Below are positions 3,607 through 18,619 of a stretch of 22,828 bases of DNA, piece after piece. The notes below the pieces were generated by a model. That model was not told where the DNA came from and did not search any database. It saw only the letters and a list, made by a program, of their open reading frames with translations. Position 1 is the stretch's first letter. Each line of letters opens with the position of its first letter. The DNA is from Candidatus Fermentibacterota bacterium (lineage in GTDB: Bacteria > JAFGKV01): assembly GCA_030620115.1 (NCBI GenBank), contig JAUXFG010000057.1, forward strand, positions 1 through 22,828, written 5' to 3'. The position numbers and the translations under genes are program-made.

Positions 3607-3687
3607 AGTCAGTTCAGCGATTCCGCACGGAACTGAGCCGCCGCTTCGCGCCGGGAGGACAGATGACAGACGACACAACCGATGCAA

Positions 3688-3722
3688 ACATCGAACATCG
3701 AACATTCAACATCGAACTTCGA
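3688..3722 (+). repeat. Heptad repeat array, ACATCGA type
   Basis: Five consecutive 7-bp units: ACATCGA, ACATCGA, ACATTCA, ACATCGA, ACTTCGA. The same ordered units with a different copy number occur at 9482-9523. Two further units lie in inverted orientation at 3873-3886. Confidence 0.85.
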
Positions 3723-3872
3723 AGTTAAGATGGAAGGCGGCATCATAGCCTTCCGCGTTCTCCTCGCGAACTCAGTTCTTTCGTCCCTTCGAATCCAGGT
3801 AACAGATACCTTCATCAATCCCACCATTTCCCACAAGGGGCGATCGACCTCGCTGGGATCCTCTTCACTCCT

Positions 3873-3979: not shown

Positions 3980-4011
3980 TCCGACTTTACCAACATGTTG
4001 GTAAAGTCGGA
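3980..4011. repeat. 32-bp perfect palindrome centred on CATG
   Basis: Each half is 16 bp. The left half reads TCCGACTTTACCAACA and is followed by its exact reverse complement, with the symmetry axis between 3995 and 3996 (CAACATGTTG). T6 precedes it on the plus strand rather than following it, so it is not a classical plus-strand terminator. Other perfect palindromes centred on CATG lie at 9339-9362, 10459-10498 and 10585-10604. Confidence 0.9.
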
Positions 4012-4131
4012 CCCACAAAGCGCCCAGACGGACGTCCGCCGGAATCCCTGCCCTGCCCGTGGGAATGACTACATAGTCTCTCTCGGCGAGATTCCGAGCC
4101 AACGGAGAAGGGCATTCATTCGCCACATGTC

Positions 4132-4159
4132 TTGACAGCTTCTCCCTGAAGCGTATCAA
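4132..4159 (+). promoter_or_regulatory. Candidate sigma-70-type promoter for the secreted transglutaminase-like gene
   Basis: TTGACA at 4132-4137 is a perfect -35 hexamer. A 16-bp spacer leads to TATCAA at 4154-4159 (4 of 6 matches to TATAAT). The predicted start near 4166 leaves a leader of about 45 nt before the ATG at 4212. This is sequence resemblance only. Confidence 0.45.
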
Positions 4160-4211
4160 GGCTGATCGGAGGTCATGTGTTTCTGTTCAACCGCAGCCCT
4201 TGGAGGTGCTC

Positions 4212-6578
4212 ATGCGCGCGAGAACTCCAGTACGACTCCTGATCCTTTTTCTGATCACCGCGGTGCTTCACGGCGCCAGCTCTGTTTCCGCGGATTCTCT
4301 CAAAGGCATCACCGCAGATCCCGAAGAAGGAATGCCCGTCTGTGTCGGAATCGAGCCTGCGGTGAGGATCGGAGATCCTTGTGAGATTCTTGCTGAGCCC
4401 ACGCATCTCACGGTGGGGGAGCTTCTACCGTGCGACAACTGGGAGCCTGTGGAATCTCTGACCACGCATGTCAAGGTCGGCGCGGGTAGCTGCTACACCG
4501 CGTATTTCGACCACCTCGATTTTTCATTAGGTGAGATTGAGCTTCCCAGCCCTCTGTGCGACGAGGCTCGCGAGGCGGTGTTGCGAGCTCCGGGCTGGCT
4601 GAGAGAATCGCTGGCCGATAATTTCGGCAGGTTGGAGGCCTCTCATCAGAGGATCTTCGCAGGACTCATACTCGATGCCGAAGATCCATTGGTGGATGAG
4701 ATCGCTTTCCAGGTGGCGCGGATGGCGCCCGTATCACTGACACACGAGCTCTTTGACCCTGATCTTATCGTGGAGAACGCCCAGTTGCTCTACGAGCATG
4801 ATCAGGTACTGCAGTACGTCGAGATCGTGGACCATGGCTCCGCGGCGGCGGGTGGTGATTACTACTCAACTACTCAATACAGGGTGGTGCATGATGAAGA
4901 CACTACCTGGGTCGAGATACCTAAGGAAATGTACTACTGGTATGTAGTCCATCCGAAGCTCAGCGATGAAACAGTGAAGATGAGTGCGGAGGTGGACTCC
5001 AGGCAGGCCACGTATGGATACTTCTGGCGTTACTTCCTTTTCTCGAATCCCGATACAGAGCATGACTACTCCGACAGCGCTGGGATCCCCGGCGTCTATC
5101 CGGTATTGGGTGAAGTCTTGACCCTTCCCACGGTTTATTGGGACGGGGAACAGCACAATGTTCCCTACGGCCGCCCATTCACGGCCGACGATCTGGCCCT
5201 GGATATTATCGGCAACTGGGTCAGCAGGGTTGTCCCTAATGCGGCCTCAGGCAACCGCCCCATCCAGCCCAACCAGATCGTTTACGAGCACAACGGCAAC
5301 TGTGGGGAGCTGCAGGATGCGCTCGGCGCCGCAGCCCGAACTGGTCTCATCCCTACGGTCTGTGTGTCAAACCATTGCGAGGATCATGTCTGGAACGAGT
5401 TTTTCTGGATGAGACCCGAGGATGATTGGCACGCTTACCAAGTGAGCCTGGGCGGGAGCAGCACCCACATCAACAATCCGGGAATCGCGTACGATTACGA
5501 TGTCGGCGGCAGTAAATCCGTCTCCGGCGTGTGGGTCTGGAGGGGCGATGGGTATACCTACTCTGTGGTGGATAGGTACTCCAACTTCTGTACCCTCGTC
5601 GTTCAGGTGGAAGATGCCAATGGCAAGCCCGTGGACGGGGCGCTCGTATTGCTCTGGTCTGATGCCTGGGGAGGCGGGGGGCTCACCTCCTGCATATGGG
5701 CCTATACCGATTCCAAGGGCTTCTGTTCCCTCAAGCTAGGCGATCTGCAAGACTACTATATGCACGTGCAAAGCTCCATCGGAGACTATCCACCAGGGGG
5801 GCTGGACGCCGTTGTCCAGATCATCGATGATTCCGAGCCGAATCAGCCCTACTTCAAGTCCGTCACGATTGCAGGCGCCGTGCCCCGGCACGAGTGTCAG
5901 GTAGATGCCACCCAAGGCGACCGATATCAGATGCGGATTCAGTTCGACATCCCCCACGAGATCATCTACGGGGCTAATCTCTATGGTGATGATGCCGACT
6001 TCGCGAAATGGGAGCATCCCGGCCTGGCGGATCTTTTTCTGATGGATCAGGCAAACTACGAGCTCTACATCCAAGGCGATGAGTTCACCGCCGCGGTGGC
6101 GGCACAGGATGTGGGATCCGGGGAGGTCATCTTCTCCTTGGCAGACCCCATCACCGACTGGTATCTGATCCTTTCCAATGAAGATCATCTGGTCAACACA
6201 CAAGGGATCGATGCCCACGTGGTGCTCTATCGCAATACCCAGGGGATCTCGGATCTTCCGCTGGTGGACGGCGCCCCCAGGCTGGAACAGAACTGGCCGA
6301 ATCCGTTCTCCCTGACCACCACGATTTACTATGCCGTACCAGCGTTTTTGGACCATACGCCTCGTGCCTCCCTTGAGATCTACAATGTCTTGGGTCACCG
6401 CGTAAGAACCCTGGTGGACGAGCGGAGGGCGCCGGGAAGGCATTCCGTCACCTGGGACGGAATCGGTGGCAGCGGTCTGCCCGTGGGCAGCGGCGTCTAT
6501 TTCTGTCGGCTCGCGGTTTGGCCATCCGACGGCGCGAAGCCAATGGTCACCACTAGAAAACTCATTTACTCGGATTAA
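4212..6578 (+). CDS. Secreted transglutaminase-like protein with C-terminal sorting domain
   Basis: A 788-residue exported protein. I chose the ATG at 4212 because GGAGG lies at 4202-4206; the longer frame opens with TTG at 4200, ahead of that site. Residues 1 to about 28 form a signal peptide (basic MRARTPVR, then a hydrophobic stretch, then SVSA). The middle carries a transglutaminase/protease-like core: GNCGEL with Cys near 364, and DHVWNEFF with His near 392. The family's third residue, usually an Asp after a Trp, is not obvious: the equivalent stretch reads WHAYQVSLGG. About 460-530 looks like a carboxypeptidase-regulatory or CNA-B type beta sandwich (VEDANGKPVDGALVLLW). About 690-788 is a FlgD-like/type IX-like sorting domain (NWPNPFSLTT, LEIYNVLGHRVRTLVD, GSGVYFCRL, TRKLIY). 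The role may be protein crosslinking, proteolysis or only a structural fold; the substrate is unknown. It is probably cotranscribed with the gene 12 nt downstream. Confidence 0.85.
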   Translation: MRARTPVRLLILFLITAVLHGASSVSADSLKGITADPEEGMPVCVGIEPAVRIGDPCEILAEPTHLTVGELLPCDNWEPVESLTTHVKVGAGSCYTAYFDHLDFSLGEIELPSPLCDEAREAVLRAPGWLRESLADNFGRLEASHQRIFAGLILDAEDPLVDEIAFQVARMAPVSLTHELFDPDLIVENAQLLYEHDQVLQYVEIVDHGSAAAGGDYYSTTQYRVVHDEDTTWVEIPKEMYYWYVVHPKLSDETVKMSAEVDSRQATYGYFWRYFLFSNPDTEHDYSDSAGIPGVYPVLGEVLTLPTVYWDGEQHNVPYGRPFTADDLALDIIGNWVSRVVPNAASGNRPIQPNQIVYEHNGNCGELQDALGAAARTGLIPTVCVSNHCEDHVWNEFFWMRPEDDWHAYQVSLGGSSTHINNPGIAYDYDVGGSKSVSGVWVWRGDGYTYSVVDRYSNFCTLVVQVEDANGKPVDGALVLLWSDAWGGGGLTSCIWAYTDSKGFCSLKLGDLQDYYMHVQSSIGDYPPGGLDAVVQIIDDSEPNQPYFKSVTIAGAVPRHECQVDATQGDRYQMRIQFDIPHEIIYGANLYGDDADFAKWEHPGLADLFLMDQANYELYIQGDEFTAAVAAQDVGSGEVIFSLADPITDWYLILSNEDHLVNTQGIDAHVVLYRNTQGISDLPLVDGAPRLEQNWPNPFSLTTTIYYAVPAFLDHTPRASLEIYNVLGHRVRTLVDERRAPGRHSVTWDGIGGSGLPVGSGVYFCRLAVWPSDGAKPMVTTRKLIYSD

Positions 6579-6590
6579 AAGGGGGCGGAA

Positions 6591-9317
6591 ATGACCAGGC
6601 GAATGTTGTATATCGGGATCGCCATAATGATGGGCGTCTCCGGCATGATCGTGTCTTCTTCGGCTATGAACGTGGAGCAGAGCAGCCCAGAGGAACGGAA
6701 CTGGGATACGGGTTGGCATGACGCCGGCTTGATCCGTCTCTACATCACCAATTATGCCCGCCACGGCTATGAGAATGCGTGCGAGTGGCCAGCAGGATCA
6801 GGCGATACCTATATCTTCGGTGCAGGAATCTGGGTAGGCTGCATGTCGGGCGAGCAGTCCCTGGTGACGGTAGGGTACGACCCTACCAACGGCAGCACGG
6901 AATTCGTTCCCGGCAACCTGCCCAATGAACCGGACTATGACGACCCAACCGACCGGATCTACTGGTCGAATGACCCAGACGATTTGGCTGAATGGCCGCT
7001 CATGGACGAAAACGAGAATCCCATTGTGGTCTCGTCGCTTGATTCATGGTGCCAGTTCAACGATATGGATACCACACATCACGCAGCCGGAGATACACGC
7101 CCTATTGGGATCAGGGTGACGCAGACCGGCTATTCGTGGAACTTCCCCGTGTACGAGGACTTCCTGTTTCTCACCTATCAGGTGGAGAACGTCTCAGAGG
7201 TCCCCCTTCATCAGGTTTACCTGGGAGTTGCCTGCGACGCGGATGTGGGCGATTACACCAACGACTTGGTGGGCTTCGACCCTGACCGGAATCTGGGCTA
7301 TGCCTTTACGGAGCGTCCGCCTGGTTCCGATGTGCCCGGTTACATCGGCTATGATTTCCTGGAAAGCCCTTTGGATTCCACGGGAGCACAGCTGGGATTG
7401 ACGGCGTTCAAGATCTTTACGAATCAAGGCGTTCCTCCTGATCCCGGTACTGATAGGGAGCGATACCTGGTCTTGTCCGGCTACAACCATCAGACCGGCG
7501 TTTATGAACCATTCGATGAGATCACGGAAGCGCAGGACATTCGGTTTGTGCAGTGCACAGGGCCCTTTGACCTGGCGCCGGGCGATACGGCAAAGGTGGT
7601 GGTGGCAATCATCGCCGGGGAAGATACGGCTGACCTTTTCTTGAACAGCGATGTAGCTCAGACCGTGTACGACAATGGCTTTGCCACACACGCCGTGACG
7701 ATTCTCACGCCTAATGGGGGCGAAACCCTCAGCGGCATGGCAGACATCACCTGGCAAGCGATTTCCGCAACGGGTGATCCGTTGACCGTGGATCTCTTCT
7801 ACAGCAGAGACCGGGGACGGAGCTGGAATGAGATTGTTACGGGTGAGGTTGATGACGGGACCTATGCCTGGAGCACCACCGAAGCACCGGACGGCGCGTG
7901 GAATATGGTAAGAATCAGGGTGACCGACGGGGTGCTGGTGGGTGAGGATACCTCCGACAGCCTTTTTACCATCAATAATCCAGGAAATGCCGTTCCGGAT
8001 GTATGGCTTGTTTCCCCCAACGTAGGGGAGCTTGATGGGGTCACACCCGTTCTCTGGGAAGCGGTTGACGCAGACGGGGACGAGCTTCTGGTGGATCTTC
8101 ACTATGGATTCCCCGACGGGGAATGGACCGCCATTGCCCAGGGCCTTCCCAACCTTGGAACCTATGACTGGAACACGTATGAGACAATCAATGGGACGTA
8201 CCGCCTCAAGGTGCTGGCCAGTGACGCGGATACCTCAGGAGTCGATCTCTCCGACTATATGGTGACGATTTACAATCACCATGAACTATACGGACATGTC
8301 AGCCGCATCCATGGCGTATGTAACAGCGTGACCTTGCTTCCCTATGTCCATGCTCCGGAAGACACCACGGGGCACGACTATCGAATCGAGTTCAACCCCA
8401 TACGCCGAGGGACTCAAGACAGGCCCATCTACTCCTATGATCTTTTCGACGACAGTACTGAGGAACTGTTGCTGGATGATGTGGAGCTCTCAACCGTTCA
8501 AAATGGCGCCCTCCACACAGACTGGTCTCCCCTCTTTCATGGCATTTCCTTGAAGATCGATAGCCAGGTGGACCAGTTGACCTTCCACTATTTTGATTTT
8601 GAGATGACGATGGATGCTGCAGGCTGTGACGGGGAGCTCTCAATCTCGCCCATTGCGAATTCCAATGCATGGGCGTTCAGGGGTTCTGATCTCCAGCTCA
8701 GGTGGCAGGCCGCCCCAGGCGATAGCCTGACCCTCGAGGTGTGGGATCTCGACAACGATATCGCGGTGCCGTACGCCGAGGAGGTCGGCGATAACTGGGC
8801 ATTTGCCAGGTCGCAGACCGACCTCTCGCCGGTCTACCGGCCAGGCCATGACCGGATGATCTGGGTTTGTGGCGCGTTCTTCGTGTTCGATCTTCATTAT
8901 TCGATGACCGTGCCTCCCCTTCCCGGAGACATGTGGTCCATTGCAGCTTCTGGCGACAGAGTGCCCTGCGCCGGCAACATTTTCCACTTCGGGCGCGGGA
9001 CCCTGGAGAGCGAGAATCAACCCCCGGGGTCCAAGCCGCATTACTGTTCTCTTGCCCAGAACACCCCTAACCCGTGGGCCGAGACCACCCGGATTCGCTA
9101 CGCGCTGTCGCGGCCATCACGGGTTACTCTCAAGGTCTACGATCTTTTGGGGCGTGAGATCACGGTGCTGGTGGACAAGACGCAAGAAGCGGGAGCGCAC
9201 ACGGTGATGTGGTCAGGAAGGAATAGCGTGGATGATCCTGTGGCTTCGGGCCTCTATTTCTACCGGCTTGAAGCCGGGGATTTCGTCGCAACTCGAAAGA
9301 TGGTCTTGCTTCGATAG
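6591..9317 (+). CDS. Secreted Ig-like-repeat protein with C-terminal sorting domain
   Basis: A 908-residue exported protein starting 12 nt after the preceding gene, with a purine-rich GGGGGCGGAA before the ATG. Residues 1 to about 26 form a signal peptide. The first 360 residues are rich in Trp, Tyr and Asp and resemble no family I can name. Two beta-sandwich modules follow: about 371-461 (ILTPNGGETLSG, VDLFYSRDRGRSWNEI) and about 470-562 (VWLVSPNVGE, VDLHYGFPDGEWTAIAQG). Both have the NGGE-x-W pattern common in bacterial adhesin and surface proteins. The C-terminus, about 818-908, is a FlgD-like sorting domain (LAQNTPNPWAETT, LKVYDLLGREITVLVD, ASGLYFYRLEAG, TRKMVLL). No catalytic motif is visible, so a structural or binding role at the cell surface is more likely than enzymatic. 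Its pairing with the transglutaminase-like gene suggests a joint export route. Confidence 0.85.
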   Translation: MTRRMLYIGIAIMMGVSGMIVSSSAMNVEQSSPEERNWDTGWHDAGLIRLYITNYARHGYENACEWPAGSGDTYIFGAGIWVGCMSGEQSLVTVGYDPTNGSTEFVPGNLPNEPDYDDPTDRIYWSNDPDDLAEWPLMDENENPIVVSSLDSWCQFNDMDTTHHAAGDTRPIGIRVTQTGYSWNFPVYEDFLFLTYQVENVSEVPLHQVYLGVACDADVGDYTNDLVGFDPDRNLGYAFTERPPGSDVPGYIGYDFLESPLDSTGAQLGLTAFKIFTNQGVPPDPGTDRERYLVLSGYNHQTGVYEPFDEITEAQDIRFVQCTGPFDLAPGDTAKVVVAIIAGEDTADLFLNSDVAQTVYDNGFATHAVTILTPNGGETLSGMADITWQAISATGDPLTVDLFYSRDRGRSWNEIVTGEVDDGTYAWSTTEAPDGAWNMVRIRVTDGVLVGEDTSDSLFTINNPGNAVPDVWLVSPNVGELDGVTPVLWEAVDADGDELLVDLHYGFPDGEWTAIAQGLPNLGTYDWNTYETINGTYRLKVLASDADTSGVDLSDYMVTIYNHHELYGHVSRIHGVCNSVTLLPYVHAPEDTTGHDYRIEFNPIRRGTQDRPIYSYDLFDDSTEELLLDDVELSTVQNGALHTDWSPLFHGISLKIDSQVDQLTFHYFDFEMTMDAAGCDGELSISPIANSNAWAFRGSDLQLRWQAAPGDSLTLEVWDLDNDIAVPYAEEVGDNWAFARSQTDLSPVYRPGHDRMIWVCGAFFVFDLHYSMTVPPLPGDMWSIAASGDRVPCAGNIFHFGRGTLESENQPPGSKPHYCSLAQNTPNPWAETTRIRYALSRPSRVTLKVYDLLGREITVLVDKTQEAGAHTVMWSGRNSVDDPVASGLYFYRLEAGDFVATRKMVLLR

Positions 9318-9338
9318 CCGCGGAGGGCTGTCGGATGT

Positions 9339-9362
9339 ATGGGCACGGCATGCCGTGCCCAT
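9339..9362. repeat. 24-bp perfect palindrome, copy 1 of a GGGCACGG-CATG-CCGTGCCC element
   Basis: The 20-bp core at 9341-9360 is identical to 10585-10604, and two flanking base pairs extend the symmetry here to 24 bp. It is centred on CATG between 9350 and 9351. It lies about 20 bp after the stop of the Ig-like gene but has no T tract. Confidence 0.9.
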
Positions 9363-9480
9363 GGAGAATCTCACGGACGAGGACCGGCGAGAGATGCGGA
9401 GATCCGCGTACTGTGCGGAATTCCCGACGAAGCTCGGGATGAGGAAAGGGATAATGGCCAATGGCTAATTGCTAATTGTC

Positions 9481-9523
<43 letters not shown>

Positions 9524-9723
9524 AGTTGGAAGGGGAAGTTCGAGACCCGCCTTCGTCGTATGGCTTCGGCGTGGCAAGCGAAGTTCGGGATGAAGTTTTG
9601 GGAAAAGCTCTGTGAAATCGACGAAGCTCCCGATGAAGCTCCCGACGAAGTTGTCCGGCTGACCTTTGATCTCTGACTTCTGACCTCTGGCGATTGCGGC
9701 CGGAGGCCGCCCTGGGAGGGCAT

Positions 9724-10416
9724 ATGATGGAACAACGAAACGATCAGGCGCAGAGAGGAACTCTGGTGATTGCCATTCTGGTGTTAGGCTCGCTCTGGGG
9801 TCTCTCGGAGGTGGTCGTGAATGGAGGGATCCGTGCGGCGGGGCTCCCCTATCGAGCCGGCATCTTGGCCGGAGTGGGCATGGGCATTATGGGTATCGCC
9901 ATGGGTCTCTTTGGCAAGGCGCGGATGCTTGTTTTGATCGGGCTGCTGGCGGTCCTCCTCAAGCAGCTCGTGGTACCGATTCTTCATGTCTCCGTACTAT
10001 GTAAGGCAAACTCCTGCATAGCAGTGATGTTCCAGGGGCTCGCCTTGGCTACCGTGGTGAGCGTCATGGGGCGCCGGTTTGAGAAGAGCGATCTTGCCAG
10101 GATTACTACAGGAGTGTCGGCAGGATTGCTTGCTGCGCTGGCTTTCTATCCGGTGGGCATCCGGGTGGCGCCCTGCCCGTATCTCCTCTCCTTCTGCCGT
10201 CCCGGCGGTTATGGGGCATTCATGGCTGCCGAAGGCCTCATATGGGCGGCCTTCTCAGGCATACTCCTCCCTGCGGGGTACTGGCTGGGGCAACAGATGG
10301 AAGGAGTCATTCTTGTGCCGGGGAGAAAGAAGCCCGTGCTCTACTATGCGGTGTCAGGGGCGGTTGTCGCATGTTGCTGGGTCGCCGGCGCTCTTGCTAT
10401 TGCGGCGGGGATCTGA
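9724..10416 (+). CDS. Unrecognised polytopic membrane protein with two cysteine pairs
   Basis: About 230 residues. GGGAGGG at 9714-9720 supports the ATG at 9724 (or the next codon, ATG at 9727); the longer frame starts with TTG at 9694 and is less likely. About six membrane helices are visible, beginning with the stretch around LVLGSLWGLSEVV. Four cysteines form two close pairs: C93 and C98 (CKANSC), and C151 and C158 (CPYLLSFC). I do not recognise the family. The size and six-helix shape would fit a substrate-binding component of an ECF-type transporter, but no ECF ATPase or T component is nearby, so this is only a suggestion. The cysteine pairs could bind metal or form disulfides. The gene stands alone, convergent with the HD-GYP gene. 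Confidence 0.75.
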   Translation: MMEQRNDQAQRGTLVIAILVLGSLWGLSEVVVNGGIRAAGLPYRAGILAGVGMGIMGIAMGLFGKARMLVLIGLLAVLLKQLVVPILHVSVLCKANSCIAVMFQGLALATVVSVMGRRFEKSDLARITTGVSAGLLAALAFYPVGIRVAPCPYLLSFCRPGGYGAFMAAEGLIWAAFSGILLPAGYWLGQQMEGVILVPGRKKPVLYYAVSGAVVACCWVAGALAIAAGI

Positions 10417-10458
10417 TCGCGGGATCTGCTCGGGAAGAAGCTCCAAATCGCGGCTTTG

Positions 10459-10498
10459 ATAAATCTCTAGTAAATCCATGGATTTACTAGAGATTTAT
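10459..10498. repeat. 40-bp perfect palindrome centred on CATG
   Basis: Left half ATAAATCTCTAGTAAATCCA (10459-10478), followed by its exact reverse complement. The axis lies between 10478 and 10479, inside CCATGG. There is no mismatch. It begins 42 bp after the stop of the membrane-protein gene. The element is far more AT-rich than its surroundings. A single-stranded form would give an 18-bp stem with a CATG loop. No T tract follows, so an ordinary terminator is unlikely. Confidence 0.93.
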
Positions 10499-10522
10499 GT
10501 CAATGAGTCCTTACATCTTTAT

Positions 10523-10539
10523 CCCGCGCAGTACGCGGG
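10523..10539. repeat. Short GC hairpin in the convergent gap
   Basis: CCCGCG at 10523-10528, loop CAGTA, CGCGGG at 10534-10539. The following CGGGACTACGC is shared with the hairpin tail near 12801-12811, so it may be a fragment of a dispersed repeat. Confidence 0.5.
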
Positions 10540-10584
10540 ACTACGCCTCCCGTCTACGCCAAGGCTACGCCGCGACAGGCCGGT

Positions 10585-10604
10585 GGGCACGGCATGCCGT
10601 GCCC
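10585..10604. repeat. 20-bp perfect palindrome, copy 2 of the GGGCACGG-CATG-CCGTGCCC element
   Basis: Identical over 20 bp to 9341-9360, in the convergent gap about 60 bp beyond the stop of the HD-GYP gene. The flanks differ from copy 1, so symmetry stops at 20 bp. Confidence 0.9.
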
Positions 10605-10661
10605 CTACATGGGTGAGACCAATTCTGCGCCAAGAATGCGAACTCATTTCTGCGCGAACAC

Positions 10662-12221
10662 TCAATCTACGACTTCCTGCAGGGCGCGGGCCACTTCAGG
10701 ATCAAACTGCGTGCCCGCGGCAGTCATCACCTCTCTGACAGCCTCCATTGGCCGCTTCGGCGAACGATATTTTCTGGATTCAGAGGTCATGGCCTCATAT
10801 GCATCCGAGACCGCCACAATGGATCCAGCCAGGGAGACTTCTTTCCTCCCTCGTGGGTAGCCTGTCCCGTCCATTCTTTCATGGTGCTCGCCCACGATCT
10901 CTGCTATATCAGGAACTCCAACCCTCTTGAGGATTTCCTCTCCTACGGCGGCATGTTTGTGGAGCTGTTCGACATCTCTGGGCGACAGCGGTCTGATTCT
11001 ATTCAAGAGGGTCCATGGGATCATGAGTTTGCCTATGTCATGAAGCAGGCCCCCGAGCTCCACCTGTTTCAGCCATGTTTCGTCCACCCTTGCTTCGCCG
11101 CGCATTGAGTTGGCGAGTCTCTTGGACAAACCGGCAACACGCTTTGAGTGGTCACTCCCCGTATACCAGTCCTTGCTGCGGAGGAGGTTGAGGAGTTCCG
11201 TGATAATGAGGGCGCCGGAACCCTCCAGCGTCGAAATCCGGCGGCCTTCTCTGGCCATGAGATCGCCCAGCATGTCGAGAGAAACCTCGGCGATGCGCAA
11301 TTCCTGTCTCACATTGATGAATATCAGGCTTGATCGCAGGGCCTTCTTGGACCATAACAAGGCTTGCTCTATGTCTTGGCGCGCAGCCCAGAGCTGTGCT
11401 TTTCTTCTGTACACCTCTGGGAGGAGTCGTTTCAGCTTCTTCTCGGCGCAATCTTCCTCCAAGGAAACGAGGAGTTTCTCGGCGTTGTCTGTTTCACCTT
11501 TCATGAGATACAGTTCCGCAAGATTGCTCATTGTGATGATCCTGGTTCTCGGCCTCAGCTTGGTTTGCAGCGCATGCTCGAACACGTCCATGGCCTGGGC
11601 GATATACGCCCTATCATGGCCGTATTTTCGTGCCCTGCGGAGATGGGACCACCCAAGGTTGTTGCTTACTGCGCCGGCGACCTCCTCCCGCCCCATCCCA
11701 CGCGCCTTCTTGAATCGCTCGGCAGGCACATACTCCAGCGCTTCCAGTGCGCTTGTGTAGAGTACCTCCGCACGGTCGAACTGCTCCAGCTCGGTAAGGG
11801 CATTTGCATAGTTGCTGAGCACTCCGCTGCGGAGGAAATAGGGATCGGAATGCTCTATAAGGCTGAGAGCCTCGACGAAGTAGTCACCCGCCTCATCGAA
11901 TAAGCATTGGTCGGCGCACGAAAGACCCGCCAGGCTCAGGAGATAGATGGCGTCCGCACTCTCTCCGGTCCTCAGCAGAAGACGAGCGCTCCGGCGGGCA
12001 ATGATCTCCGCGGCTGAAGGGTCGCCGATCCTTCTGAGATGCCTTACCGTTCTTCTCAAGAAGGACCCGGAAGGAAGATCATCGACCACCAGACTCTCCA
12101 CCACGTGCAACAGCTCCTCTATCAATCCAGAGGCTTTCCCGTAGGGCCCCGGCGTCAGAGTAGGAAGTGCAGGGAGCCCGTCCACCTGCTTGACCAGGTA
12201 TTCGATTGTCTTACGGTTCAT
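10662..12221 (-). CDS. TPR-repeat protein with C-terminal HD-GYP domain (probable c-di-GMP phosphodiesterase)
   Basis: 519 residues from the ATG at 12221. GGTGG lies about 8 nt upstream; the longer frame opens with TTG at 12236 and is less likely. Residues about 70-330 are helical TPR-like repeats (NLGWSHLRRAR, NLAELYLMKGETDNAEKLL). Residues about 345-519 form an HD-GYP domain with the expected metal ligands and signature: H in GSDHSKRV, HD at 394-395 (LLHDIGK), H in LHKHAAVG, HHE at 446-448, GYP at 454-456 (DGTGYPRG) and D in AVSDAYEAM. Known HD-GYP proteins hydrolyse cyclic di-GMP, and some act on cGAMP. There is no signal peptide or receiver domain, so the TPR part probably senses or docks a partner protein. 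Cytoplasmic. Transcribed alone, convergent with the membrane-protein gene. c-di-GMP often controls pili, and a pilus gene lies upstream in the opposite orientation. Confidence 0.92.
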   Translation of the reverse strand: MNRKTIEYLVKQVDGLPALPTLTPGPYGKASGLIEELLHVVESLVVDDLPSGSFLRRTVRHLRRIGDPSAAEIIARRSARLLLRTGESADAIYLLSLAGLSCADQCLFDEAGDYFVEALSLIEHSDPYFLRSGVLSNYANALTELEQFDRAEVLYTSALEALEYVPAERFKKARGMGREEVAGAVSNNLGWSHLRRARKYGHDRAYIAQAMDVFEHALQTKLRPRTRIITMSNLAELYLMKGETDNAEKLLVSLEEDCAEKKLKRLLPEVYRRKAQLWAARQDIEQALLWSKKALRSSLIFINVRQELRIAEVSLDMLGDLMAREGRRISTLEGSGALIITELLNLLRSKDWYTGSDHSKRVAGLSKRLANSMRGEARVDETWLKQVELGGLLHDIGKLMIPWTLLNRIRPLSPRDVEQLHKHAAVGEEILKRVGVPDIAEIVGEHHERMDGTGYPRGRKEVSLAGSIVAVSDAYEAMTSESRKYRSPKRPMEAVREVMTAAGTQFDPEVARALQEVVD

Positions 12222-12528
12222 GCTGTTTACCACCAAGGGCGGAGCAAAGGGCGGAGGGTAAGAACTCCGGCAAGAACAACTTGAGCATCTTGCATCTCAT
12301 CCCCAAGTCCGAGTGCAATTCTGTCCAACCTATTCTCGCTGACGTCCCCACAGTCGGGCGATCGTATACATCCAAGACCTCTCCAGGAGATCATTTCCAA
12401 GATGGTTCATGGCACCCTTGTCGTCAAGGACAAGAGCGGTGTTCTGCAGGTTGAAACTTGAGACGTGAGGTTTGGAACCTGGGACGAGATACCTGACACC
12501 GATGAATGCTCACATCTCATCCAGGCTA

Positions 12529-12730
12529 GCCCGAACTTCTCATCGGCTTTCGTCGCCTGTCCTGAGCCTGCCGAAGGGCGAGACGGGAGAAATGGTTGTG
12601 GCTGCAAGGCTTGCGACCGAGTCTCCCGCAGGTGTATCCTCTGCGATACGGTGAGGAAGCCGACGGAGCATAACGCAGCAGACAGAACCATTTCGGCTGT
12701 CGCAGCAGGAAGCTGGTGAGAAGTCCGGGC
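12529..12730. repeat. Inverted-repeat element of about 200 bp
   Basis: The left end 12529-12554 and the right end 12705-12730 are imperfect inverted copies (20 of 26 positions by eye; core ACTTCTCA). An inner inverted pair, GAAATGGTT (12590s) and AACCATTTC (12690s), lies inside. The left core at 12535-12556 matches 18580-18601 in inverted orientation at 21 of 22 positions, so the unit is dispersed. No transposase is encoded. Confidence 0.6.
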
Positions 12731-12778
12731 TATGGTTCGCACGGAATAGCCTCACATTCTGACATCCCAGTCTTCATT

Positions 12779-12803
12779 CCGCACCCAACGCTTTTGGTGC
12801 GGG
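12779..12803. repeat. Hairpin repeat, copy 1 (CCGCACCCAA...GGTGCGGG)
   Basis: CCGCACC at 12779-12785 pairs with GGTGCGG at 12796-12802. A closely related hairpin in the same orientation is at 18526-18555, sharing CCGCACCCAA at the left and GGTGCGGGAC at the right. Confidence 0.6.
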
Positions 12804-13478
12804 ACTACGCTCCCTCATTGATCTGAGACATGTGCAGTGATTGATAGTCGCAAACTGCGATTTGCATCGCGCGAAATGCAAAAGGCTCGTGAAAACCTGC
12901 GAGTTGACTTCTCCACACTATGCTTAATTCGTGGCCGAAGGCGTTGATGGACTTCCATTCGTGATAATAATGGTACGGCGGGCATTCCTTACCAAGTCTG
13001 AGGGTGAAGACGCTGGGCCGACAGAGCGTAGCGATTCAGAAAGGATTGCATGAGCTGTTGAGTGGAGTCCCGACAGGTGTTCGAGCCAGATCCTCGGAGC
13101 TCGTGTTTAGAGGATCCTTCTTCCATATCCTGCCAGCGAAATAGAGTCCAACCCCGGCATTCTCTGGTACATTCCAGAGTTAGCAGGAGAGCATGGATGA
13201 GCACATGCTCTCTCTCGTGCAAGTTCCCAACTATGCTCAATCAGGGGTGTATCCGCATCATTCAGGAAGGACAGATGGAACGCATCCCTTCCTTTCTTCC
13301 ACATTATTCCCGGCCTTTGGCAAACCACAAATGCGCTCCTCAGACCGTGACCTCGATCTGTAGAGCAAAGCCAACGAAGTGCTCTCCCGTCGTCCGAGTC
13401 CAATTGGATAGAAGGTGATCAGAATTGCCCCGGCTTCGGGATTTGGCAGCTCAGGACTTACCCATGTAGAAGAGATTT

Positions 13479-15452: not shown

Positions 15453-15475
15453 ATGACAGAACGAGGAGCAAGGAG

Positions 15476-15561
15476 AGATTCTTCGCTCCTTGCAGTCGCT
15501 CAGAATGACAGGGATTGTGCCGAAAACGGATGTGGCGCAGTGTGTCGTTCTGAGGGAGCGG
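15476..15561 (+). repeat. Inverted-repeat (MITE-like) element, copy 1, in the leader of the TPR gene
   Basis: The left arm AGATTCTTCGCTCC...CTCAGAATGACAG (15476-15511) is nearly identical to 18249-18284. The loop (GTGCCGAAAACGGATGTG) and the inner right arm (GTTCTGAGGGAGCGG, 15547-15561) also match that element, but the outer right arm has decayed. It ends about 30 bp before the TPR start codon, so it forms part of the 5' leader. Confidence 0.7.
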
Positions 15562-18178: not shown

Positions 18179-18248
18179 CCCTGAACTTCGCTTCGCGATT
18201 GGGGTCTCGGAATGATGCAATGGGAGAGCCGGATTTTGGAATAAAGCG

Positions 18249-18347
18249 AGATTCTTCGCTCCTTGTGGTCGCTCAGAATGACAGTGGTAGTGCAAAAGGA
18301 TGTGTAAATACCTGTCATTCTGAGGGAGCGGAGCGACTGAAGAATCT
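18249..18347. repeat. Inverted-repeat (MITE-like) element, copy 2, intact
   Basis: Left arm 18249-18284 and right arm 18312-18347 are imperfect inverted copies, with AGATTCTTC at both outer ends and CTCAGAATGACAG at both inner ends, around a 27-nt loop. The whole unit is 99 bp and encodes nothing credible. A half-decayed copy lies at 15476-15561. Confidence 0.8.
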
Positions 18348-18525: not shown

Positions 18526-18555
18526 GTCCCGCACCCAAAGCGTTGGGTGCGGGAC
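18526..18555. repeat. Hairpin repeat, copy 2
   Basis: GTCCCGCACCCA at 18526-18537 pairs perfectly with TGGGTGCGGGAC at 18544-18555 around the loop AAGCGT. Related to 12779-12803. There is no T tract on either side. Confidence 0.75.
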
Positions 18556-18619
18556 AGCCACAGCCAACTACACCGCTTCGCGACGAAAGCCGGTGAGAAG
18601 TGCGGCCTAGGAACACAAA

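What the first reader, a model, noticed from the sequence alone, without database searches (positions are those of the whole stretch)
3980..10604. Four long perfect palindromes of three unrelated sequences, all centred on CATG
3980-4011 (32 bp), 9339-9362 (24 bp), 10459-10498 (40 bp) and 10585-10604 (20 bp) are mismatch-free, and each has CATG at the exact centre although the arms are unrelated (apart from the two identical cores). If single-stranded, all give hairpins with the same CATG loop. All are intergenic and none is followed by a T tract. A shared processing or target rule, such as a single-strand transposase, nuclease or binding protein recognising the CATG tip, would explain it better than chance.
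Basis: partly seen in the sequence, partly recalled or inferred. Interest (0 to 1): 0.6.

Follow-up and report, generated by a model that had tools for sequence, protein, structure and literature searches.

The report
Three dispersed palindrome repeat families
The four perfect palindromes are real, but they are copies of three separate dispersed hairpin repeats (two of them one well-known kind, the REP) that share the letters CATG at the tip mostly by coincidence; the one unusual part is a 40-bp palindrome repeated more than 60 times in this genome whose arms stay matched while its surroundings drift.

Summary
All four palindromes exist at the stated coordinates, mismatch-free and centred on CATG; about 0.03 of 20 bp or more is expected per window. 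They are not one class under a CATG rule. 9341-9360 and 10585-10604 are GTAG-tagged REPs (GTAG + 8-bp stem + 4-nt loop): 46 exact copies in this genome, exact copies in many phyla, sometimes beside RAYT transposase genes. 10459-10498 is one of about 61 copies of a genome-specific 36-40 bp palindrome, 'TAG40'. 3980-4011 has two copies. CATG dominates long palindromes by copy number only because two families are abundant: by family it is 4 of 15 (P about 0.07 against this genome's own background). Other long palindromes centre on GCGC (22 copies) or AGCT, and 19 of 52 TAG40 tips are not CATG.

The single-strand transposase idea fits the REP but not the shared tip. TAG40 is the real surprise: the core is invariant between copies whose flanks are only 65-83% identical; arm changes are compensatory while the tip varies freely; one copy carries a template-switch-like scar lengthening its arms to 29 bp. 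Best reading: a REP-like hairpin repeat, arms kept complementary by hairpin template switching, core constrained, mobiliser unknown.

The parts
3980..4011 (.). 32-bp perfect palindrome TCCGACTTTACCAACATGTTGGTAAAGTCGGA; low-copy repeat (one other copy, C211:28180-28211, sharing a 3' flank CCCAC[A/T]AAGCG)
9339..9362 (.). REP copy: core GGGCACGGCATGCCGTGCCC at 9341-9360, palindrome extended by AT on each side; GTAG foot degenerate (GTAT on the left)
9393..9421 (.). degenerate companion hairpin segment (inverted copy of 10521-10549), part of the same composite repeat as the REP at 9341
   Evidence: inverted repeats I6 and I8
10459..10498 (.). 40-bp perfect palindrome ATAAATCTCTAGTAAATC-CATG-GATTTACTAGAGATTTAT; one of about 61 TAG40 copies in the genome; lies between convergent ORFs (9694-10416 + and 10662-12236 -)
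10523..10544 (-). second GTAG-footed hairpin (GTAG T CCCGCG-TACTG-CGCGGG read on the - strand) beside the REP; the pair forms a composite, BIME-like unit
   Evidence: same arrangement in L001 and other copies
10585..10604 (-). REP copy GGGCACGGCATGCCGTGCCC with intact GTAG foot (CTAC at 10605-10608 on the + strand)

Best explanation
The four palindromes are members of three unrelated families of short dispersed hairpin repeats that share a CATG centre largely by coincidence. (1) 9341-9360 and 10585-10604 are a GTAG-tagged REP: GTAG foot, 8-bp perfect stem, CATG loop. REPs of this kind are thought to be miniature elements moved as single-stranded hairpins by RAYT/TnpA-REP transposases; the RAYT serving this REP here is not identified. 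(2) 10459-10498 (TAG40) is a genome-specific hairpin repeat of at least 61 copies. Its arms appear to be kept complementary by replication template switching within the hairpin, or by selection for the hairpin; its inner core (pairs 3-13) is held nearly invariant between copies by selection or by conversion between copies. How it spreads is unknown. (3) 3980-4011 is a two-copy repeat of the same shape. Shown: copy numbers, GTAG foot, compensatory arm changes, free tip, core-versus-flank contrast, the C21 (L050) arm replacement. Inferred: mobilisation by a single-strand transposase, template switching as the process, selection on the core.
For: REP: 46 exact copies and 69 with up to 2 mismatches in 4.1 Mb, control 0; at least 118 stretches in genomes of many phyla; GTAG on at least one side in 69 of 90 foreign and 22 of 25 own copies; REP beside RAYT genes in a few other genomes: L272, about 55 bp away; L140, L183, L215, L219, within 350 bp; own copies carry compensated variants such as GGGCATGG-CATG-CCATGCCC. 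TAG40: 61 copies at up to 3 mismatches of a 22-mer; half-sites practically never alone (1 of 88); 38 compensatory cells against 12.8 in shuffles, 93.8% of cells paired; pairs 14, 15, 16 and 19 switch both sides while the tip pair 2 is mismatched in 19 of 52. Core identity 100% against mean flank identity 65-83% within flank types, and searches made with flanks alone still find the core in 14 of 15 places, so this is not a search artefact. In L050 the stretch next to the core is replaced by the complement of the other arm up to the shared CGTTG. No shared tip rule.
Against: No RAYT in this genome is flanked by the CATG REP. The intact short RAYT (L018) is flanked by another hairpin, GTCGGGTTACGC. 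TAG40 has no GTAG or CGTC foot, and its only near Y1 neighbour (L019) is frameshifted and looks incidental. Template switching explains matched arms but not an invariant core, so a second process must be assumed. Compensatory changes were partly inherited within subfamilies, so independent events are fewer than the counts. A weak CATG excess by family (4 of 15, P 0.07; about 0.01 against a flat 1/16) is not excluded.
Confidence: 0.8

Rival explanations
1. One reading: one single-strand transposase, nuclease or binding protein recognises a CATG-tipped hairpin whatever its arms are, and all three families are its substrates.
For: Three sequence families in one window share the CATG centre, chance about 0.008. 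Published TnpA-REP work shows that the loop base can be decisive for recognition (PMC8266576).
Against: 19 of 52 TAG40 tips are CATA/TATG. Other long palindromes of this genome are GCGC- or AGCT-centred and also dispersed. Family-level CATG count 4 of 15, P 0.07. Related genomes have RAYT-linked GTAG hairpins with other tips.
Confidence: 0.07
2. TAG40 is the binding site of a host DNA-binding protein (a dyad-symmetric site used in nucleoid organisation or regulation), and its core is conserved because the host needs it.
For: Core invariant across copies with diverged flanks; more than 60 copies, mostly between genes, in all orientations of neighbours.
Against: Both arms change together at pairs 14-16 and 19 and the centre is free, which fits a hairpin better than two half-sites. 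The conserved stretch is longer than usual dyads. Copies lie in repeat-rich spacers and share flank modules, so they spread by duplication. Absent from the two other genomes of the same family.
Confidence: 0.2
3. The palindromes are transcription terminators or RNA-stabilising hairpins between convergent genes.
For: Window copy of TAG40 and one REP lie between convergent ORFs; convergent spacers are somewhat enriched (12 of 30 TAG40 against 21% of random intergenic positions).
Against: No T tract; terminator scan no better than shuffles and does not pick them; 8 of 30 TAG40 lie between divergent genes; no Rfam match. REPs may affect RNA secondarily.
Confidence: 0.08

Closest known systems
GTAG-tagged REP elements and RAYT/TnpA-REP transposases (PMC3733652, PMC2817692, PMC8266576)
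   Same: GTAG foot, short perfect stem with small loop (same layout as the perfect-palindrome group, e.g. the 8-bp stem and 3-nt loop of S. maltophilia REPSm), high copy number, extragenic, composite with a second REP; sometimes next to RAYT genes in other genomes
   Different: For the REP: nothing essential, except that the cognate RAYT in this genome is not identified. For TAG40: no GTAG/CGTC foot, much longer AT-rich stem (17-29 bp), no linked transposase
TIRYT-associated TIR repeats (PMC3733652)
   Same: Repeats, partly self-complementary, dispersed in moderate numbers and linked to tyrosine transposases; one TAG40 copy lies about 200 bp upstream of the Y1 gene in L019
   Different: TIRs flank both sides of the gene; TAG40 is on one side only of a frameshifted gene, so the association is not shown
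Quasipalindrome template-switch correction (E. coli reporters, PMC7202029)
   Same: Imperfect inverted repeats become more perfect when the nascent strand copies its own arm; predicts paired arm changes and arm extension, as in L050 and L030
   Different: Here it is read from standing variation between copies, not from mutations observed as they occur
ERIC/IRU-type intergenic palindromic repeats (from memory, not tested)
   Same: About 100-200 bp intergenic repeats built round an inverted repeat, without their own transposase
   Different: Sequence not compared here; TAG40 has a short invariant core and mixed flank modules

Membership tests
GTAG REP (9341-9360, 10585-10604) | unpaired GTAG tetranucleotide at one end of the hairpin | tested here: met
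   22 of 25 own and 69 of 90 foreign copies; window copy 10585 has it, copy 9341 has GTAT
GTAG REP (9341-9360, 10585-10604) | 20-40 bp hairpin in high copy number, outside genes | tested here: met
   69 copies at up to 2 mismatches; most between ORFs
GTAG REP (9341-9360, 10585-10604) | linked RAYT gene flanked by the same REP | tested here: inconclusive
   Found beside RAYT genes in some other genomes (L272, L140, L183, L215, L219), not in this one, where four Y1 genes exist without it
GTAG REP (9341-9360, 10585-10604) | cleavage of the single-stranded hairpin by its TnpA-REP | not testable with these tools
   needs purified protein
GTAG or CGTC REP, applied to TAG40 (10459-10498) | GTAG or CGTC foot | tested here: not met
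   position-wise consensus of 53 copies shows no such foot
TIRYT/RAYT-linked repeat, applied to TAG40 | copies flanking a Y1 transposase gene on both sides | tested here: not met
   one copy upstream of the L019 Y1 gene, none downstream within the locus
Intrinsic terminator | G+C-rich stem followed by a T tract | tested here: not met
DNA uptake sequence pairs (hairpin of two uptake words) | the single word also occurs alone in high number | tested here: not met
   half-site outside the palindrome in 1 of 88 cases for TAG40

The most novel reading that the evidence does not exclude
TAG40, together with the GCGC-centred family of the same genome, is a foot-less class of long, AT-rich, perfect-hairpin repeats whose arms are continuously re-matched by template switching and whose core is recognised by a dedicated, still unknown hairpin-binding factor (a single-strand transposase acting in trans, or a host protein).
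Probability: 0.25. Interest if true: 0.55.

Novelty: new member of a known kind. Interest (0 to 1): 0.33.

Why it matters
It disposes of a supposed CATG tip code and places half of the finding in a known class. What remains useful is TAG40: dozens of copies that record, in one genome, how a palindrome stays perfect. Paired arm changes, a free tip and an arm replaced up to a microhomology make it a natural record of hairpin template switching, and the invariant core points to a factor that could be sought.

Tried and rejected
CATG rule: rejected by census and by the tip variation. Terminators: no T tract, no scan hit. Known RNA family: none in Rfam. DNA uptake word: half-sites not found alone. 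Phage origin: no TAG40 or 3980-type core in IMG/VR. TAG40 as the REP of the L019 Y1 gene: one-sided, gene frameshifted, and the flank there is a module shared with other copies. Coding ends on both sides of TAG40: a few open frames end at or near the palindrome, but no shared product was seen. Insertion of the core into older repeats: flank types X, Z and V are almost never found without the core, although R1 and W modules are; so a larger, diverged unit and not only the core was duplicated. A full-text search for interspersed perfect palindromes in bacterial genomes found nothing.

Full report
What was checked. The four palindromes are present at the given coordinates, without mismatches and with CATG at the centre. 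They are the only perfect palindromes of 16 bp or more in the window; a Markov model of the window expects 0.03 of 20 bp or more. As single-stranded DNA each folds into the expected hairpin with a 4-nt CATG loop.

They are three families. The window is contig C258 of a 4.1-Mb, 296-contig genome. GGGCACGGCATGCCGTGCCC (9341-9360 and 10585-10604) has 46 exact copies there and 69 with up to two mismatches, with none for the reversed control. CTCTAGTAAATCCATGGATTTACTAGAG (inside 10459-10498; here called TAG40) has 55 copies at up to three mismatches, and 61 with a shorter 22-base probe. TCCGACTTTACCAACATGTTGGTAAAGTCGGA (3980-4011) has two copies.

The first family is a GTAG REP. GTAG stands next to the stem on at least one side in 22 of 25 own copies and in 69 of 90 copies from other genomes. 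The sequence occurs exactly in at least 118 stretches from many phyla (Chloroflexota, Planctomycetota, Cyanobacteria, Acidobacteria, Omnitrophota and others). In a few genomes it lies beside a RAYT-like gene: L272 about 55 bp away, and L140, L183, L215 and L219 within 350 bp. In the window it is paired with a second GTAG-footed hairpin (10523-10544), and the pair recurs in inverted, degenerate form at 9341-9421, which is how REPs form composite units. A GTAG foot, a perfect stem and a small loop are the published description of the perfect-palindrome REP group, where TnpA-REP reads the loop and the stem (PMC8266576; PMC3733652). This genome has four Y1 genes, but none is flanked by this REP; one (L018) is flanked by hairpins of another sequence. 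So the class is clear and the active partner here is not.

No CATG rule. In about 1.06 Mb of this genome, palindromes of 18 bp or more fall into 17 cores. Merging one REP variant and one GCGC variant with their parents leaves about 15 families: 4 centred on CATG, 3 on GCGC, 3 on AGCT and 5 on others. Against the frequency of CATG in short palindromes of the same genome (0.11) the chance of 4 or more is 0.07; against a flat 1/16 it is 0.01. The excess by copy number comes from two abundant families. A family built like TAG40, AAACTGATTAAGTTCC-TGCGCA-GGAACTTAATCAGTTT, is centred on GCGC and has 22 copies at up to three mismatches. TAG40 itself carries CATA or TATG in 19 of 52 copies. A GTAG hairpin beside a RAYT gene in a genome of the same family has a different stem and tip (L266).

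TAG40 in detail. Arms are complementary to 17-20 bp in most copies and to 23-29 bp in six. Counting pairs over 49 aligned copies gives 93.8% paired cells and 38 cells changed on both sides, against 12.8 in shuffles, with all slid controls far lower. Pairs 14, 15, 16 and 19 occur in two matched forms (C-G/G-C, T-A/A-T, A-T/T-A, T-A/G-C), whereas pair 2, in the loop of a hairpin, is mismatched in 19 of 52. A sub-family of about five copies keeps an unmatched arm (GATTTAGTGGAG), so a perfect match is not required for copying.

Core against flanks. Grouped by flank type, positions 3-13 of the arm are 100% identical while positions 21-75 are on average 65-83% identical. To exclude that this only reflects searching with the core, the genome was searched with flanks alone: 8 of 9 places for type X and 6 of 6 for type Z still carry the core; the one exception (C86) is joined to another repeat. 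Other flank modules (R1, W) are mostly found without TAG40, so TAG40 stands at junctions of a mosaic of intergenic repeats. The core is therefore constrained or homogenised in a way its neighbourhood is not.

A template-switch scar. In L050 (C21) the sequence beside the core reads GGCGTTG-TCCGCT-AAATC, where a sister copy (L049) reads GGCGTTG-GAAT-AAATC. The new stretch is the exact complement of the opposite arm (GATTTAGCGGACAACG), and the change ends in the shared CGTTG. In L030 one base is changed on both arms at once relative to its sister copies. This is what copying of one's own arm in a hairpin predicts; in E. coli such events make imperfect palindromes more perfect (PMC7202029). It is an inference from standing variation.

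Mechanism. REP: single-strand hairpin recognised by a RAYT acting in trans, now or in the past (class membership shown; mobilisation inferred). TAG40: hairpin repeat, arms re-matched by template switching (inferred, moderate confidence), core held by selection or conversion between copies (inferred, cause open), spread by an unknown route. Neighbouring genes are convergent in 12, tandem in 10 and divergent in 8 of 30 cases, against a terminator or promoter role. TAG40 was not found in 40 related genomes by exact 20-mer, in two genomes of the same family at up to three mismatches, or in IMG/VR.

Limits. ORFs were chosen by length alone. The sequence of the two-copy palindrome at 3980 is too rare to interpret.

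Noticed in passing
G000 contigs C17:23242, C37:4216, C64:4163, C90:20654, C99, C209 and others (L252-L256, L049:13237): Second long-palindrome family, AAACTGATTAAGTTCCTGCGCAGGAACTTAATCAGTTT, 22 copies at up to 3 mismatches, outer arms covarying (CTGATT, CTATTT, CTAATT with matching partners), flanks mostly unrelated; some copies join two different arms.
   Followed up: partly
L076:10056 (C110): A TAG40 copy is interrupted after TGGATT by a long hairpin GAGCCACTTGCAAAACC...GGTTTTGCAAGTGGCTC.
   Followed up: no
L018 (C200:12766-13119): Intact short RAYT gene flanked by hairpins GTCGGGTTACGCTGGGCTAACCCGAC, four within 3.4 kb: a likely complete REPtron of a different REP.
   Followed up: partly
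L019 / L045 (C241:39862-40391): Apparently frameshifted Y1 transposase gene with a TAG40 copy about 200 bp upstream.
   Followed up: partly
window 3687-3724, 9481-9532, 12526-12556, 12774-12805, 15465-15520, 18238-18347, 18526-18610: Spacers are mosaics of further dispersed repeats (AACATCGAACATCGAACATT..., GTGAGAAGTYCGGG..., TTCTTCGCTCC...TCAGAATGACA, CCGCACCCAA...TTGGGTGCGG), several of them seen again elsewhere in the genome sample.
   Followed up: no
G000 C78:4, C83:6, C104:24, C293:15: Several contigs begin inside or right beside a TAG40 copy, so the repeat probably breaks the assembly and true copy number may be higher.
   Followed up: no
L003 (C7:51593-51646): Two REP copies 34 bp apart (start to start), one with and one without GTAG foot.
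   Followed up: no
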